In this document: piece by piece, positions 2,053-64,000 of the stretch
Layout of the letters: the number at the start of each line of letters is the position of its first letter
How positions within the stretch are numbered: position 1 is the stretch's first letter
NCBI GenBank assembly: GCA_033961575.1
Contig: CM066740.1
Location: 92,363,117-92,427,116, forward strand
Reading direction: 5' to 3'
DNA length: 64,000 nucleotides
From: Aselliscus stoliczkanus
Lineage: Eukaryota > Chordata > Mammalia > Chiroptera > Hipposideridae
Position numbers and translations under genes: made by a program
The notes under the pieces: generated by a model
The model's database searches: none
What the model was told of the DNA's origin: nothing
The model's input: the letters and a program-made list of their open reading frames with translations, nothing else

Positions 2053-3150
2053 ACTGTCACCGCGTAGCCGCCGGTGTCACGTGTAGCCGCCGGTGGTATC
2101 ACGTGTAGCCCCCGGTGTCATGTGTAGCCGCCAGTGTCACGTGTAGCCCCCGGTAGCCGCTGGTGTCACGTGTAGCTGCCGGTGTGACCGAGTAGCCCCC
2201 AGTGTCACGTGTAGCCCCGGTGTGACGTGTAGCCCCCGGTGTTACGTGTAGCCGCCGGTGTGACCGTGTAGCCCCTGGTGTCACGTGTAGCCCCTGGTGT
2301 CACGTGTAGCCCCTGGTGTCAAGTGTAGCCCCGGGTGTCACGTGTAGCCGCCGGTGTCACGTGTAGCCCCCCCTCCCATGTCCCTGTATAGCCGCCAGTG
2401 TCACGTGTAGCGGCCGGTATGTAGCCCCCGGTGTCACGTGTAGCCGCCGGTGTCACGTGTAGCCCCAGTGTCACGTGTAGCCCCCGGTGTCACGTGTAGC
2501 CGCCGGTGTGACATGTAGCCCCCGTGTCACGCGTAGCCGCCGGTGTCACGTGTAGCCGCCGGTGTGAAATCTAGCCCACGTCTTACGTGTAGCCCCCCAC
2601 CCGGGTCCCCGTATAGCCGCCAGTGTCACGTGTAGCCGCCGGTGTGACATGTAGCCCCCGTGTCACGTGTAGCCCCCGGTGTCACGTGTAGCCCCAGTGT
2701 CACGCGTAGCCGCCGGTGTCACGTGTAGCCGCCGGTGTGACATGTAGCCCCCGTGTCACGTGTAGCCCCCCTCCCGTGTCACCGTATAGCCGCCAGTGTC
2801 ACGTGTAGCCGCCGGTGTGACATGTAGCCCCCGTGTCACGCGTAGCCGCCGGTGTCACGTGTAGCCGCCGGTGTGACATGTAGCCCCCGTGTCACGTGTA
2901 GCCCCCCTCCCGTGTCACTGTATAGCCGCCAGTGTCACGTGTAGCGGCCGGTATGTAGCCCCCGGTGTCACGCGTAGCCGCCGGTGTCACGTGTAGCCGC
3001 CAGTGTGACATGTAGCCCCCGTGTCACGTGTAGCCCCCCTCCCGTGTCACCGTATAGCCGCCAGTGTCACGTGTAGCCGCCGGTGTGACATGTAGCCCCC
3101 GTGTCACGTGTAGCCGCCGGTGTCACGTGTCGCCCCGGCGTCACGTGTAG
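2053..3150. repeat. Minisatellite of ~18–20-bp units rich in CACGTG
   Basis: About 1.1 kb of tandem units of the form GTGTCACGTGTAGCCGCCG and variants (CCCCC for CCGCC, GACATG for CACGTG). A hand count gives about 30 intact CACGTG palindromes plus many one-base variants. Higher-order structure is visible: a block with a CCCCTCCC insertion and a GTATAGCCGCCAG unit recurs near 2370, 2594, 2769, 2904 and 3034. There are no unique spacers and no coding potential. Copy number is likely variable between alleles and hard to assemble. Confidence 0.95.
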
Positions 3151-3169
3151 CGATACGCCCCCACAGCGG

Positions 3170-49944: not shown

Positions 49945-50071
49945 CGTGCAAGGACTCCATGCTCGCAGCGTCATTGTCGATGAGCGCCGAGGCCACCCAC
50001 ACGATCCCAAACATCAGCAACGCCAGCAGGACAAGCATGACCAGGGTTTCTAAAACCCGGGCTCGGATCCC
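49945..50071 (-). CDS. LMBR1: LMBR1 exon 6
   Basis: 127 nt, acceptor CTTCTTTTCAG, donor GTAGGC. It encodes residues 142–183: GIRARVLETLVMLVLLALLM, then FGIVWVASALIDNDAASMES and LH. A long membrane span is followed by the conserved IDNDAASMES loop. I chose the inner of two acceptors because it gives a continuous reading frame; the outer one, 53 nt upstream, shifts the frame and reaches a stop. Confidence 0.95.
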
Positions 50072-50124
50072 CTGAAAAGAAGGACAAGCATGACCAGGGT
50101 TTCTAAAATCTGGGCTCGGATCCC
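50029..50124 (-). repeat. LMBR1: 53-bp tandem duplication creating two exon 6 acceptors
   Basis: The first 43 bases of exon 6 (50029–50071) are repeated at 50082–50124 with two or three differences. Each copy is preceded on the coding strand by a pyrimidine tract and CAG: TTCTTTTCAG for the inner, ATATTTTTCAG for the outer. Using the outer acceptor adds 53 nt (not a multiple of three), giving GIRAQILETLVMLVLLFRGS, then a few residues and a stop. Confidence 0.92.
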
Positions 50125-52880
50125 CTGAAAAATATAATAGCGATGTCATTTTAATATTTTATTTCATGACATGACAATTACGTTTCTGTGTGAAAGCATA
50201 AAAATTCTTTGTAAGGAGAATTTATTAGCTGGACAAAACACACTAAAGGCTTACAGTCTGTAATGTGTAGACTGACTTTTCAAAATTATGTAAAATACCA
50301 TTAAGCTTTGAAGACACTACCAAAAAAATTCTTCATAAAAGCATTTTGCAGAACCATTTCAAACAATTAATTACTTTCCTAACACCTTCCACCAAGAAAG
50401 TAGATTAACAATTTTTTTATCTGTGGTTCTAATCAAAGGAACGGAAGGCCAAGCGGGGCATACGGCCCAGCTGGTCAGCCCGCGGCCCTGGGCGGCACAG
50501 AGGCCTGGGTCCGCCTGCAGCGCCCGGCCTCCGGCGCCCTCTAGTGCGCGGCCGGAGAAGTCCTCGTCTACTCCACCTGAGCAGCCAAGGGGACAGCAGT
50601 TACACCGACGTCATCTCATCCCCGTCCACGCTAGACAGAATTCTCATTAATTCCAGCACGAGGCTGGAAGACAGCAAAGGAGCCTTATTGCACAATCTGC
50701 TTTAAATATAAAGCAGGTTCCGACCTCAGGGCCAAACTCGAGGCCAGGCTGTTGAACTTGAAGGCAAAAACGAAAAACAAAAAACCTTCCTTACATTCCT
50801 GACGTCACCAAATGATTGAGTCCGTACCTAAACTTAAAAGTTCACACTGGTACGATAATGCACTAATCTACAACGTCTAAGACAACAAACAAAACGATAA
50901 GTATTTCCATGTTTCATAATGAATCACACAATCTTCCTTCCACATTAAAAATAGTTTAAAGATATGACTTATCAACACACACTTATTTCAATGTTGCCAT
51001 AACTATTATTTCCCAATTTCTGGATTACAGGAATAGGCTGCACTCAAATCATGGCACCCCAGTTCCCAAATTCAATGGCTGGAGTGGGCATGTCCTAAAC
51101 CAGAGGCGAGCAGGTTTTCGCAGCCCTAAGTGACAACACGGGTCCAAGCGGCCCAGTGCCACCACCATGGGGCCACCCTGCTCACTGAGAGCCAGCACCC
51201 TGAGCCCAAGGGGAGGGGGGGCCGCTGACCAAGAGGATGAGGCTCGTAGCTCACACCCAGCAGTAGACACTTCGCCGGCGAGATGAAGTGTGAACAGTAC
51301 AAAACACGCACCTAAACAACGCACTCCCACTTCACGGGAGAACCTCAGAACCTGACTTCACGACTTTCAAACACTTGGGATGCCCAGACATGACCACCAC
51401 TTTTTAACAGGGATTTCTTTCTCTGTCTTTCTCTCTTTCTAAAGAACTATCTTTTTATTACACAGTAACTGTTATGTGGAAAGCCTATAAATCACACAGA
51501 TAAAGAGCAGATGCTCTGGTGTGCGTGTGTCACACGCTCACAGCTCCTGCCTGCCTCTCTGACCAGCCCGCGGGGATATGAGGGCGCCCAGAACACGTAA
51601 CACGTGTGTCTGAAGTGTTGTGAAATGCGCCGAGGAGTACACCACGGTTAATATCTATGAGCTACGCTCCTTGGACCCATTTGAGACCCGCTGCCCAAGC
51701 AAAAGTGTTTAAATACTGTTATAATTATTAAACAGTTATAACAATGTAACCATAGTGTTACAATGATGATGATGATCAACGTTAAGGACTTAATCTCCGT
51801 AAGATTTACACACTTCCTGATATTGTGTTAAGAAATGTCTCTCTCAGCCCTGTGGGAGAGATCTACAAAATCATGAGACATTTTGGCTGCTACGTTCTGA
51901 AGTGGGTCCTCAGCGTGACCTTGCCATCCTTACACTGACCTCCGGCTCGCGGACAATTCCCACTGAGTGCTGAAATGCGTCACACTCTCCTTGCCCCCCG
52001 CGCACCCCCTCTCCCAACGCCGCTGACCTGGCCCCCCAGTGAGGCAGGCCCCTCGGCCCCCTCGCCCAACCCTTTGTCTCGGGCCCCAGCCTCACGTCTC
52101 TTCTTCGGCGAAGGAACATCTGCCGGCCCCCTTTCTCCCACGCTCAGGCTGCGAGCCCAGCCTCACGGGCGGTGTGGGTGCTTCTCAAACTCCAGCCCTG
52201 ACGGCACCTCTGTCCAACCTGGGAAGACGGCTCACCTGGCAGTCGGCTGCTCTTCGCCAGGCGACCTTGCCGCCTCACGTGGCCAAGGCCTCTCCAGTCT
52301 TGATCTTGAGTCCAAATCTTACCGCTGAGGCCAAGGCCATACGGCCTCCTCCGCCCCCCTTAGGTAACTCACAGGCACCTTCCACTTAATTCTAAACTGG
52401 AGCTCCCCATGTTACCCTGAAACCTGCTCCTCCCTGAGTGTGCCCCTGCTCAGGCCGTTTGGCACTGTCACCTCCTTCCCGCTGCACCGCCCCATGCACG
52501 CCCCCGGCCCCTCCCCTGCCGCCACGGCCTTCCCCCGGGATGACCCCCTAACCTCCTGGCCAGTGTCCTGCACCCACACTTGTGTCTCTCTCCGACCTGC
52601 TGCCTACAGTGCGGTGCGAATGTGATCTTTTCAAAATGCAAATCTGGCTATGCCACCTCAGCTGTGCCTTGCTAACGGGTGCAGCCTGCAGCTGGGGACA
52701 GCTGCACTGGTGTGACAACAGATAACGGAAGTCCCATCTCGGAGCACCCTCTCGGACCAGCTGACAGGCTACACAAGTGTGTCCTCAGAATGGACCCTTG
52801 CTCTCCCGTCTGCTGTGTAGACAGCAAAGAACAACTACAGATAAAAGAAACCAAAGTATTTATGACTTAACAGCATAGAA

Positions 52881-59076: not shown

Positions 59077-60181
59077 AAACGCATACGGGGACAAAAGGGC
59101 CCACACGACTGGTGAAGGAACATGCCAAGTTTAAGCTCCACCTGGACCAACCTTTCCTAGAGACCCGAAGGTTCACACTGTGACATGCTAGACAAGTGAT
59201 TCTACAGACGAATAAATGCGTGTTTCAATGCCAAACAAATGTACCATCTTAACAGTCTGAAGTCTAGCCCCTTGGCTGAGCCCTTTCTTACAGGTCTGTG
59301 GTGTGGGTCATATTATGTAAAAAGCTCTGTAGTCAGCATTAAATCTGACATTTAATTTTACTTTCAAATAAAGTTCATTCTAACCAAGGGTGGACAGTTT
59401 TCAATTCCCCAAAAAACTTTTAGAAAAGAGACTCTAATTGACAATGGCTATTTCTATAAAATCGTTTCAGGAAAATTGGAAGTCTTAGGGCCAGTTTAAT
59501 GAAAATTAATTACAATTACTTTAAAATCTAAACCCAGTGATTTTTTTATTTCCTCCCTACCAAAACTTTTCCCCATTTAACAAAGAGCCCTGAATTATGA
59601 GACATTTGTTGGCAATTTAATCATCATATAAAATAAAGCTTGAAGTTTAGTTACCCATTAAACATAATACCTATTTTTACAACCCATACTGGTATAAGAT
59701 AAAACAATTTCAATTTCAAAAAGTAAGTAAATGAAGCTGGCTGTCTGTGCCCCTGTCATTTCTCACATCGCGTTGCCATAGATACCATATAAAAGCAGTC
59801 TGTCCTACACACAAGTCTTGCGGGGTCTCACTGAGGCTCAGCTGCCACACTGTGCACCTATTCCAACTGCCACTGCGGCTGTCTTGGGGGAAATCTGCAA
59901 ACAGACTGGATGGGGCGGCCCAGCCCCTTGGCAACGCGGTGACAGGGTGAGCCCTGCAGGCCCATTTCCCAGAGACACAGAGAAATGTGCCTGCAGGTCC
60001 AGGTGAGCAAGGAGGAGGGGAAGTACTGTGCAAATAAAGAGACAACCCAGCCTCGCGGAAATCTCTCCTTTTTGATAAGTGGAGACAAGGATGAAAGTGC
60101 TGTATAATAATAGTCCAATTCAAAGTACCAGACCATCAAAGTACAGGAGAACGGAGCGATGTCTTTTAAAAACACAGCTGC

Positions 60182-60292
60182 GGGCCAGACGAGTGGCGCG
60201 GTGGTTAAGCGCTGGTTTGGGAAGCCAGCAGCCCTGGTTCGGGTCCCACATATGAGGGCCAGTGACACTGCCCTCAAAAAAACAAAAACAAA
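60182..60292 (+). mobile_element. Short tRNA-derived SINE (first of a pair at one target)
   Basis: Sense copy with GGGCCAGACGAGTGGCGCGG head and an A-rich tail. It is flanked left and right by AAAAACACAGCTGC (60168–60181 and 60293–60306). Confidence 0.93.
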
Positions 60293-60306
60293 AAAAACAC
60301 AGCTGC

Positions 60307-60453
60307 GGGCCGGCTGAGTGACGCGGTGGTTGAGTGCTGGCTTGGGAAGCCAGCGGCCCTGGTTCGGGTCCCATATACGAGGGCCAGTGATACTGCCCTC
60401 AAAAAATAAATAAAATAATAAATAAATAATAAACAAATAAATAAAATGTTTTA
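60307..60453 (+). mobile_element. Short tRNA-derived SINE (second of the pair)
   Basis: Sense copy with GGGCCGGCTGAGTGACGCGG head and an AAATAAATAA-type tail. It is flanked by the same AAAAACACAGCTGC on both sides (60293–60306 and 60454–60467). Head and tail differ from the preceding copy. Confidence 0.93.
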
Positions 60454-60609
60454 AAAACACAGCTGCTATTTAAGAAAAACAGAGATGTTACTGAAGTTAT
60501 AATTAATTCCATCCGATATGCAATTGTATAAGAATATTGACAAAATTAATGTCATTTCATGAAGTAAATGATTTTTAGTTCAAAATCTTTATAAACTCAA
60601 ATAACTTTT

Positions 60610-60712
60610 TTTTTTTTTTGAGGGCAGTGTCACTGGCCCTCACATGTGGGACCCGAACCGAGGCCACTGGCTTCCCAAGCCAGCACTCAACCACCGCGCC
60701 ACTCGGCCAGCC
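60610..60712 (-). mobile_element. Short tRNA-derived SINE upstream of the ZRS
   Basis: Antisense copy with a perfect 14-bp target duplication CTCAAATAACTTTT (60596–60609 and 60713–60726). It ends about 285 bp left of the ZRS core. Confidence 0.93.
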
Positions 60713-61298
60713 CTCAAATAACTTTTAAATGAAATAAACTCTTTTCCTCAATACATACGCTTTGTCTTTCTCTGAGGTCCCATGAGCCAAGCTTCCAGGA
60801 CTGAAATCTCTGGCTATCCTGTGGTAACCATGCCTGTTACAGTCGAGTGACAATTTCTAAAGGAACCTTGAGTGGAACAACAACACTGGAATTGAATGTT
60901 TGGAAAATAATCATTCTTATCCATGTTGTTTCTCTGGAAAAAAACTCATGCTGCCAATTGGGGGAGGGTGGAGGAATTCTATTAATAACCTACTGAATGA
61001 TTTTTTTTTCTTGAAGGTGTTGGGAAAATCACATTAACACATAACAATAGTTAGTGAGATATGACTCCATCTTCTGTAATAAACACCAAGATCAAAACGC
61101 GACCCTGGGTGAATTTCCTTGAAAGGTCCTCAGCAGGAGTTTCCCTTTGGGATGTGATTTCCTCTGGCCACAAAACCCTGCGGAATATGCGCCTGTGCCA
61201 CTAACACTAAGCAGCACTTCCTCAGTCACTCATTTCCAACAATTTATGGATGAGCAGTGGCAAAAACAAGCAAAAATAATGAAAGAACGCAATGAAAG

Positions 61299-61345
61299 CT
61301 CGCTGAGGCCGCGCGGGCCTCCCTACGCGGCCCTGCATGTCTTTA
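61299..61345. promoter_or_regulatory. Divergent CpG-rich block inside the ZRS
   Basis: Between the conserved GAAAGCTCGCT and GATGGAGGCCTGACAC lies a stretch with GGCCGCGCGGGCC and TACGCGGCC. I recall this interval in human and mouse as AT-richer and containing an ETS site with TTCC core; here the aligned position reads TCCC (61320–61323). No GGAA or TTCC occurs from 61238 to 61377. The comparison is from memory. Confidence 0.6.
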
Positions 61346-61385
61346 GATGGAGGCCTGACACAAATTAGCCACTGCGGGGAAAAGT

Positions 61386-61391
61386 CATCTG
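61386..61391. promoter_or_regulatory. Conserved E-box in the ZRS (HAND2 candidate)
   Basis: CATCTG within GAAAAGTCATCTGGCCATAA, a stretch conserved with other mammals as I recall. HAND2 is known to act on the ZRS through an E-box; assignment to this one is inference. CCATAAA directly follows and fits posterior HOX binding. Confidence 0.6.
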
Positions 61392-64000
61392 GCCATAAAA
61401 TACAGTACAAGGTCACTTTTATGTAAGTTTGCCAAAAGGGACATAAACCAGGACAGTCTCAAACTGTGACACAGGATAGGAGCATATTAAAGCGATCTCT
61501 GTTCCTCCTCCATTGTGCTGCCGCGGTGCCCACTTTATAGGCTCCAAGCACCAGCACGGAGCTCTTCGCTTCCACCTGGTCAGTCCAATTAATTAAGAAA
61601 GGAAGTCACCGCAAATTTTGTACTTTTTGCTTTTATTATCGAGCACTCCGTTTGAAGTTACAGGAGTTAACCTCTTAATCCTTCAGACCGTGTGCTATGT
61701 TCTGGACATTTCGGGATGTCTGGATGGCTTGGGTAATTAGTCAGGATGTTGCTGTCACTTATGTTAAATTTTATGCTATGATTTCAAATCAAAGATAGGC
61801 ATTAAGGTGAGGCACGGTATTAAGTTACTCCCACAAACATCTTTGGTTTAGGAATTAATCTGTCACTGATGGGAGTTTTTTCACTTTCATTCACTTGTTG
61901 AATTTTTTTCCTCATAACATTTTAATTCAAAGAGGTTAAAACATAACATGAAACAAACACGTTCTTTATTCCCAAACCTTGGCCAGGGGCTCAGCCTCTG
62001 GGTTCGTTATGCGACGGGCAAACTCTTCTGCCATCCCCCAGACAACCCAGAGGCCTCGGAGGCGGGCAGCTAGGTGGCCGTGCGACAGAGACAGCGCGCG
62101 GCGGCCCGAGACCCTCAGACTGGGGCACGCGGCTGAGTGGCCGAAACACAAACCGCGAAGAAAGTGTCTCTACCACAAAACACTCCCCAGCAGATGCAAC
62201 CTTTCTATCAGCGTTGAAAAGTTAAGGTGTAGGCGTGTGGTCAGGTTCAAACTCATAGGGACATGGACGATGTCCGACACAATACATACAGGGGACAGCA
62301 ACATCATCTACATTTGGTAAGCATTTAACTGCTAACAGTAAGTTAAAGTGCCAAGATAAAAAAAAATAAAAAACACTTGTGTTATCAAAACCACGCATGC
62401 TCTCCTGCCCTTGGGAATTACCAAGACGAGGCACAGGAGGACATAGCCCCGCTAAGACAGAAACGAGTGCCATGGTAAGGAGAAAGAAGAAAGGCTACTT
62501 GAGACCCTTAAAAGGACATGGCCAACCCCCCAGGCCCAAAATGTCCTGTTTGAATTAACATAGTGGCTTAATTAAAAACTAAGCAGAGAATTCTGCTTAA
62601 TTTGACTTTCAGTCCAAGCCTGCGCCTGCCGGTGGCTAGCGACCAATTTCCGCCTCTCGGCACACCAGGCAAGCGGCTGTTTTAAAATCGATCGCCCAGG
62701 GGAATCACTAGCAGGACACGGGGCCATATGCCTTTTGGGGACCCCACCAGACGTAGACACAGTAAAACAGCACCAGGAGGGGCCGGGGACTGCCGAGGGA
62801 CTTCAACTCAGCCGCATTCCAAGTTTGTCATTACTCAGATTATTGCCGATCTACCAATTAGGGGTGTTTCCTCAGCTCTCTGCGGTATTGCTGGGAGCTA
62901 ATGTGTCACACGTGACCAATGAGAAAGGGCTTCCAAGGGACATATACACAAATGTGTGCTTGCTGGCCAGCTGTGTGACGCACGGGAGCGGGTCCGAGAA
63001 GCAGCGGAGGTAGTGACAGTGCGACACGGCCTGTGGCCCCGTGTGAACCACCAGAGGTAGTAACGTGACTTAGAATCTGCCCAGTAAACACCTGCGGTCT
63101 TCCGTCACAGGAAGGCGCACGCTGCGCTTTACACACACGCTTCCCTGCACACTGCCAGCCCAGGCAGCCACTGCGCCCTGCATTCAAACTGGAAAATATG
63201 GATATTTTAAAATAACGTCATGAGCCCCTCAGTTTTAAAGCTTTCCAAACATTTCTAGTAAGGCCTAGGGTGCACCTTATCTTCAAGCAGGTTTGATTCT
63301 GCTTCAGTCCAGGCCATTTCAGTCTGGGAATAGTAATTTGGAACCTTGAAACTGCCTACCCGGTGAACGGCTGAGCGCTACCTGTGGCACTGAGCTGCCT
63401 TCAGGTGACCCCACACCACATGCTGTTTTCTGGAATACTCACTAGTCAGATGCTTTCAGCCCACGCTAGTGGCGGGACCCACTCCACTGACGGAACCGCG
63501 TCCTGGGCAATGTGTGCGCTGCCGTGACGAGTCTGCTCTCATGCCATCCAACAAGGGCACTCACTCCTATGCCCACTTTACGGAAAGAACCCCGAGGCGG
63601 TGTGACGCCTGTCGCCTTCCGCGGGCCCTTGCCCCAGCCACCCGCACCCTCCTCCTCCATCGGCGCTGGGGCCACCTCCTCCGTTTGGTCTCCACCACCT
63701 CCGTTCCCCCCACGGCTGCCGAGCCAGGCGGGCGGGCACCGTCCCGAGCCCGGCTTTCTCACCCTCCTCTGAAACTCTTGGTTGTGTCTGGGAATTACAC
63801 AGACCAGTCGTGCCAACGGTACCCTGCCATTCACCACATCAGTCCCCTTTGCTCACGAAATGGAGCTGGTGACCCTGAGGAATCCTGAGGAGAGTAACAG
63901 TCAAAGATGAGCTTAGAGAAGAATATTCAATCGCGGATAGAGGAACAAGGAGTAAAAAGTTCAGAGGGAAGAAAGTTGTACAACGGAGGGTGCAAAGTGG

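What the first reader, a model, noticed from the sequence alone, without database searches (positions are those of the whole stretch)
61010..61810. Complete ZRS limb enhancer of SHH in LMBR1 intron 5
The ~0.8-kb element is the most important functional unit in the window and has no open reading frame to mark it. Conserved blocks occur in the expected order along its length. The window suggests a bat, whose forelimb digits and limb SHH expression are unusual, so sequence change here has direct developmental interest.
Basis: partly seen in the sequence, partly recalled or inferred. Interest (0 to 1): 0.9.

Follow-up and report, generated by a model that had tools for sequence, protein, structure and literature searches.

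The report
Bat version of SHH limb enhancer
This is the well-known long-distance switch (ZRS) that turns on the limb-patterning gene SHH, here in a leaf-nosed bat; it is the expected ordinary copy, though a few of its published protein-binding sites look altered.

Summary
Window 61016-61808 (minus strand) is the ZRS, the SHH limb enhancer, in the intron after LMBR1 codon 141 (human intron 5). Support that uses no recalled DNA: six of six printed human reference bases fit one anchor, the only such anchor in 61100-61800; the published ETS and HOX sites occur in numbers that 0 of 2000 shuffles and 0 of 1414 other segments reach together; SHH lies on the same chromosome, on LMBR1's 3' side, about 512 kb away; the own-genome search listed no second place. 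Chromosome lengths identify the genome as Aselliscus stoliczkanus, a hipposiderid bat. It is an orthologue of a known enhancer, and bat ZRS has been studied before (BAR61; Myotis and mouse reporters alike). The new detail is that three published sites are missing as exact strings: a third AGGAAGT, an E-box near ETS3, and the ETV4 site B AGAAAAT. Whether this is specific to the species, the family or bats, or matters at all, could not be tested. Interest is modest.

The parts
61016..61808 (-). ZRS core (SHH limb enhancer), written 5' to 3' in LMBR1 sense from 61808 to 61016
   Evidence: extent (recalled human sequence); identity
61734..61739 (-). [C/T]AATTA homeodomain (LHX-type) site, CTAATTA context
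   Evidence: motif and long-range role from PMC12267059 (passages)
61631..61638 (-). TAATAAAA, taken as Hoxd13 site 1
   Evidence: motif C/TAATAAAA from PMC12263586
61600..61606 (+). AGGAAGT, taken as ETS site 1
   Evidence: motif from PMC3314984 (passages)
61586..61595 (.). two overlapping [C/T]AATTA sites (TAATTA and, on + strand, CAATTA)
61573..61578 (-). CAGGTG, taken as E-box 1 (paper: near ETS1; its letters were not seen in print)
   Evidence: PMC12263586
61473..61479 (-). bases matching human ZRS 328C and 334T of the ETS-A site
   Evidence: variants from PMC10830414 (passages)
61393..61447 (.). three CATAAA Hoxsites (61442-61447 +, 61418-61423 -, 61394-61399 +); CCATAAAA at 61393-61400 taken as Hoxd13 site 2, which the paper equates with Hoxsite 3 although it does not fit the printed C/TAATAAAA letter for letter
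   Evidence: PMC5561167 (passages), PMC12263586
61396..61406 (-). ACTGTATTTTA, place of human ZRS 401-411 (c.423+4914 to +4924), a segment said to be fully conserved in more than 60 species; only four of its human letters were seen in print and they match
   Evidence: PMC11394837
61386..61391 (-). CAGATG, E-box 2 (Hand2 consensus)
   Evidence: PMC12263586
61284..61345 (-). GC-rich stretch (63% GC, 7 CpG in 62 bases) between E-box 2 and Hoxsite 4; holds AGGGAGG (61318-61324), two mismatches from AGGAAGT
61243..61248 (-). CATAAA, taken as Hoxsite 4
61216..61222 (-). AGGAAGT, taken as ETS site 3
61192..61197 (-). CACAGG, 18 bases from ETS3, where the published E-box 3 (CANNTG, <20 bp from ETS3) may have been; no CANNTG within 60 bases of ETS3
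   Evidence: PMC12263586; identity of the spot is inference
61157..61163 (-). AGGAAAT, taken as ETS site 4
61113..61119 (-). AGGAAAT, taken as ETS site 5
61069..61075 (-). AGAAGAT, one mismatch from the published ETV4 site B AGAAAAT, which is not found in 60900-62000
   Evidence: PMC3314984 (passages)
49946..50071 (-). LMBR1 exon after the ZRS intron (codons 142-183); the preceding exon ends at extended coordinate 66599, 2.6 kb past the window end

Best explanation
The segment is the orthologous ZRS (MFCS1) of Aselliscus stoliczkanus: a limb-bud enhancer that works from inside LMBR1 on the SHH promoter about 512 kb away. By established knowledge of the ZRS (inference for this species), ETS factors (GABPa/ETS1) and 5' HOXD proteins bind its ETS and HOX sites to switch on and set the level of SHH at the posterior limb-bud margin, bHLH factors such as HAND2 act through E-boxes, ETV4/5 restrict it anteriorly, and the [C/T]AATTA homeodomain sites give it its range. 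Shown here: location, synteny, a single place listed in the genome, and the site array. Inferred: activity, factor binding and target.
For: LMBR1 exons ending at codon 141 (66599) and starting at codon 142 (50071) flank it, matching the printed c.423+49xx naming of human ZRS variants (PMC11394837); the 404-equivalent lies 5196 bases into the intron against 4917 in human. Six of six printed human reference alleles fit one anchor, unique in 61100-61800. Site array beyond chance. SHH on the same chromosome, matched at C14:91907043-91912467, its first exon scoring 168 bits to Sonic against 139 to Indian hedgehog chains; the C5 hedgehog locus scores the other way round. No second place listed by the own-genome search. 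Three [C/T]AATTA positions, strings taken as both Hoxd13 sites, and E-boxes 1 and 2 present.
Against: Three published sites are missing as exact strings. The variable T run that PMC3314984 reports inside the ZRS (six in human, eight in mouse) has no counterpart of six or more in LMBR1 sense within 61010-61810; nine T lie on the other strand just outside, at 61001-61009. No reference ZRS could be fetched, so base-level orthology rests on six printed bases, printed motifs and a recalled sequence. The six-base anchor alone is weak elsewhere: 57 anchors in the window plus 80 kb fit all six (34.7 expected). No functional data for this species were seen.
Confidence: 0.97

Rival explanations
1. The element is a ZRS orthologue whose regulatory logic has shifted: loss of the 3' E-box, of one ETS site and of the ETV4/5 site B changes when or how widely SHH is expressed in the limb of this bat lineage.
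For: Missing exact strings; ZRS overlaps a bat accelerated region, BAR61 (PMC4809552); [quoted passage not shown] E-box 3 was sufficient for robust activity in a chick assay (PMC12263586).
Against: M. lucifugus and mouse ZRS reporters gave similar patterns; E-box 3 is not essential when Hoxd13 sites are present, and mouse itself carries a change in E-box 3 (PMC12263586); a single ETV site suffices for repression (PMC3314984); substantial conserved parts of the ZRS are dispensable in mice (PMC5561167). The place of these sites in other mammals was not seen.
Confidence: 0.08
2. The segment is a different conserved LMBR1 intron element or a decayed second copy, not the ZRS itself.
For: None found; only that the genome copy is partly masked, so a second copy of the masked part could be missed.
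Against: Only one place is listed by the own-genome search, and the site array and printed allele positions fit.
Confidence: 0.01

Closest known systems
ZRS / MFCS1, SHH limb enhancer of human and mouse (LMBR1 intron 5)
   Same: Same intron, similar distance to the preceding exon (5196 against 4917 bases to position 404), same array of ETS, HOX, E-box and homeodomain sites
   Different: About 512 kb from SHH here against about 1 Mb in print for human and mouse; 4 of 5 AGGAA[G/A]T sites; no CANNTG within 60 bases of ETS3; no AGAAAAT
BAR61, the bat ZRS of Myotis lucifugus (PMC4809552)
   Same: Orthologous enhancer in a bat; reported accelerated in the bat ancestor and active in mouse limb at E12.5 (passages)

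Membership tests
ZRS (SHH limb enhancer) | Lies in LMBR1 intron 5 (after c.423) | tested here: met
   Flanking exons end at codon 141 and begin at codon 142; naming from PMC11394837
ZRS (SHH limb enhancer) | SHH in cis on the same chromosome, on the LMBR1 3' side | tested here: met
   C14:91907043-91912467, 511,665 bases from the exon-1 match to the ZRS
ZRS (SHH limb enhancer) | Printed human reference bases at 328, 334, 402, 403, 404, 406 | tested here: met
   6 of 6 at one anchor, unique in 61100-61800
ZRS (SHH limb enhancer) | Four CATAAA Hoxsites, three of them within a 110-bp domain | tested here: met
   Five CATAAA in the element, three within 61394-61447
ZRS (SHH limb enhancer) | [C/T]AATTA homeodomain sites, three in the core | tested here: met
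   61734-61739, 61590-61595, 61586-61591
ZRS (SHH limb enhancer) | Five AGGAA[G/A]T sites (three AGGAAGT, two AGGAAAT) | tested here: not met
   4 of 5: two AGGAAGT, two AGGAAAT; a reported site count rather than a condition of orthology
ZRS (SHH limb enhancer) | E-boxes 1, 2 and 3, the third <20 bp from ETS3 | tested here: not met
   Two of three found; no CANNTG within 60 bases of ETS3
ZRS (SHH limb enhancer) | ETV4/5 sites: B (AGAAAAT) and A (contains AGAAA) | tested here: inconclusive
   AGAAAAT absent in 60900-62000; AGAAA only at 61596-61600 within 61010-61810; where site A lies in human was not seen
ZRS (SHH limb enhancer) | Drives reporter expression in the posterior limb bud (ZPA) | not testable with these tools
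   no bench work
ZRS (SHH limb enhancer) | End-to-end alignment to human or mouse ZRS | tested here: inconclusive

The most novel reading that the evidence does not exclude
In this hipposiderid bat, and perhaps in bats at large, the ZRS has dropped the Hand2-type 3' E-box, one activating ETS site and an ETV4/5 repressor site while keeping HOX and homeodomain sites, so that limb SHH depends more on 5' HOXD input and is less tightly restricted, contributing to the unusual SHH timing of bat limbs.
Probability: 0.06. Interest if true: 0.75.

Novelty: new member of a known kind. Interest (0 to 1): 0.27.

Why it matters
The ZRS is the reference case of a long-range enhancer, and single-base changes in it cause human limb malformation. 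An orthologue from a leaf-nosed bat, placed in a chromosome-level assembly with its SHH distance, gives a natural variant with which published claims about E-box 3, ETS site number and ETV4/5 site B can be tested directly.

Tried and rejected
Recalled human ZRS as an alignment partner: 94% over 797 columns, but typed after I had read the window. I suspect that one stretch (the GC-rich gap) copied the window, so no indel or identity claim rests on it; only the ends 61016 and 61808 are taken from it, and they agree within 2 bases.

Looking for printed ZRS sequence in papers by short strings: 9 and 6 papers, none on the ZRS by title. Six strings looked for in each of PMC9304341 and PMC5659820: no occurrence. 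The sequence strings asked for in PMC12263586, PMC5592926 and PMC10830414 also gave none. Searches for papers listing numbered variants: 0 papers and 1 irrelevant paper. PMC5832050 was seen as an outline and a find without occurrences.

PYHIN/HIN domain loss as a bat test (PF02760): asked, never answered; made needless by the chromosome lengths. SINE type as a bat marker: the roughly 100-base SINE is shorter than the Ves family described in PMC4436864 (passages); not decisive and not used.

Of the six loci of that interval that I did get (53 kb), one holds 106 N.

The idea that a base in the bat carries a human disease allele near the 3' end: considered and dropped, because the human numbering there was recalled and inconsistent.

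I do not claim that these site changes are unprinted; I only note that no held paper has both ZRS and Aselliscus.

Full report
What is there. Window 61016-61808, minus strand, is a non-coding element; two ORFs of at least 50 aa overlap it, the longer 73 aa. LMBR1 lies on the minus strand. With a recalled human protein as probe, exons were found in the window and in the 80 kb fetched beyond it. The exon that ends with codon 141 is at extended coordinate 66599, followed by GTGAGT. The next exon starts with codon 142 at 50071. Human ZRS variants are named c.423+49xx (PMC11394837, whole text read), and c.423 is the end of codon 141, so the element is in the same intron, which that paper calls intron 5. 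The human 404 equivalent is 5196 bases into the intron here against 4917 in human.

Identity tests that do not use recalled DNA. Six human reference bases printed in two papers were used: 328C and 334T (PMC10830414, passages), and 402C, 403T, 404G and 406A (PMC11394837, where c.423+4919A>G goes back to a reference titled 406A>G; the other numbers follow). All six fit a single anchor, 404 at window 61403, and no other anchor in 61100-61800 fits. Over the window plus 80 kb, 57 anchors fit against 34.7 expected, so the test has force only in combination. The 11 bases in the place of 401-411, a segment said to be fully conserved in more than 60 species, read ACTGTATTTTA and occur once in the 144 kb; only four of their human letters were seen in print. 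Published sites were looked for as strings in 60900-62000. Within 61010-61810 they are AGGAA[G/A]T at four places; CATAAA at five, three of them inside 54 bases; CAGATG once; [C/T]AATTA at three positions; also TAATAAAA and CCATAAAA. At least 4 ETS and 5 HOX strings together are reached by 0 of 2000 dinucleotide shuffles and 0 of 1414 other segments.

Synteny and copy number. The hedgehog family profile gives six matches at three loci in the genome. The one on C14 is SHH: its first-exon product scores 168 bits to Sonic and 139 to Indian hedgehog chains, while the C5 locus is the other way round. The exon-1 match ends at 91,912,467 and the ZRS starts at 92,424,132, 511,665 bases apart; the promoter, not located, lies a little nearer. 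Papers give about or nearly 1 Mb in human and mouse. The own-genome DNA search listed only this place, in two pieces because part of the element is masked in the genome copy. The 501 flanking bases returned 45 matches: the place itself and 44 in the stretch around a SINE, with only 40 of 3615 first-look candidates scored, so the search does find repeats.

Species. Contigs C1, C5 and C14 are 207,901,853, 177,415,154 and 93,423,647 bases, exactly Chr1, Chr5 and Chr14 of the Aselliscus stoliczkanus assembly (PMC10724287, parts 1 and 2 of 4 read). By this inference the window is Chr14:92,363,117-92,427,116 of that hipposiderid bat. The total of 2,187,126,926 bases in 146 contigs is close to, not the same as, the 2,187,325,338 bases in 191 scaffolds printed there.

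What differs. PMC3314984 (passages) reports five AGGAA[G/A]T sites, the two at the 3' end being AGGAAAT. The bat has two AGGAAGT and two AGGAAAT; between the two AGGAAGT nothing comes closer than two mismatches. One of seven such near misses, AGGGAGG at 61318-61324, sits in a GC-rich stretch between E-box 2 and Hoxsite 4. PMC12263586 (parts 1-4 of 6 read) reports an E-box 3 within 20 bp of ETS3 that was sufficient for robust activity in a chick assay. Here no CANNTG lies within 60 bases of ETS3, and CACAGG stands 18 bases downstream. The ETV4 site B AGAAAAT is absent from 60900-62000; AGAAGAT, GGAAAAT and the ETS5 string AGGAAAT are one mismatch away at the 3' end. The T run that PMC3314984 reports in the ZRS was not found at six or more in LMBR1 sense within 61010-61810. 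All these statements are about exact strings in this assembly. That they are losses, and when they happened, is not shown, because no other mammalian ZRS could be fetched.

How it most likely works. By established knowledge (papers above; PMC5561167 and PMC12267059, passages), the ZRS is switched on in the posterior limb bud by ETS and 5' HOXD proteins, limited by ETV4/5, and given range by [C/T]AATTA sites. The bat element keeps the homeodomain sites, the HOX cluster, the strings taken as ETS1, ETS3, ETS4 and ETS5, and E-boxes 1 and 2, so ordinary activity is the expectation. The papers also say that E-box 3 is dispensable when Hoxd13 sites are intact, that mouse itself has a changed E-box 3, and that one ETV site suffices. 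PMC4809552 (passages) found the ZRS overlaps a bat accelerated region, yet Myotis and mouse reporters looked alike at E12.5; its authors do not exclude later or quantitative differences.

Verdict. It is ordinary in kind. Its mild interest lies in three absent published sites that make testable predictions.

Noticed in passing
50025-50130: The start of LMBR1 exon 6 is tandemly duplicated (53-bp unit, 94% alike) together with its splice acceptor. The upstream acceptor would shift the frame to an early stop; the downstream one keeps the frame, so its polypyrimidine tract would derive from coding sequence.
   Followed up: partly
C14:91912467-92424132 (genome), ZRS end at 61016: SHH-ZRS distance is only about 512 kb, about half that printed for human and mouse; gaps in the interval were not checked in full.
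   Followed up: partly
60168-60720: Three copies of one roughly 100-base tRNA-like SINE lie just 3' of the ZRS; 22 matches, itself included, in 144 kb.
   Followed up: partly
2055-3151: GC-rich minisatellite, about 58 copies of a 19-base unit containing CACGTG, some 8 kb beyond the end of the LMBR1 coding sequence.
   Followed up: no
61284-61345: GC-rich, CpG-bearing stretch inside the ZRS between E-box 2 and Hoxsite 4; may be an expansion in this lineage.
   Followed up: no
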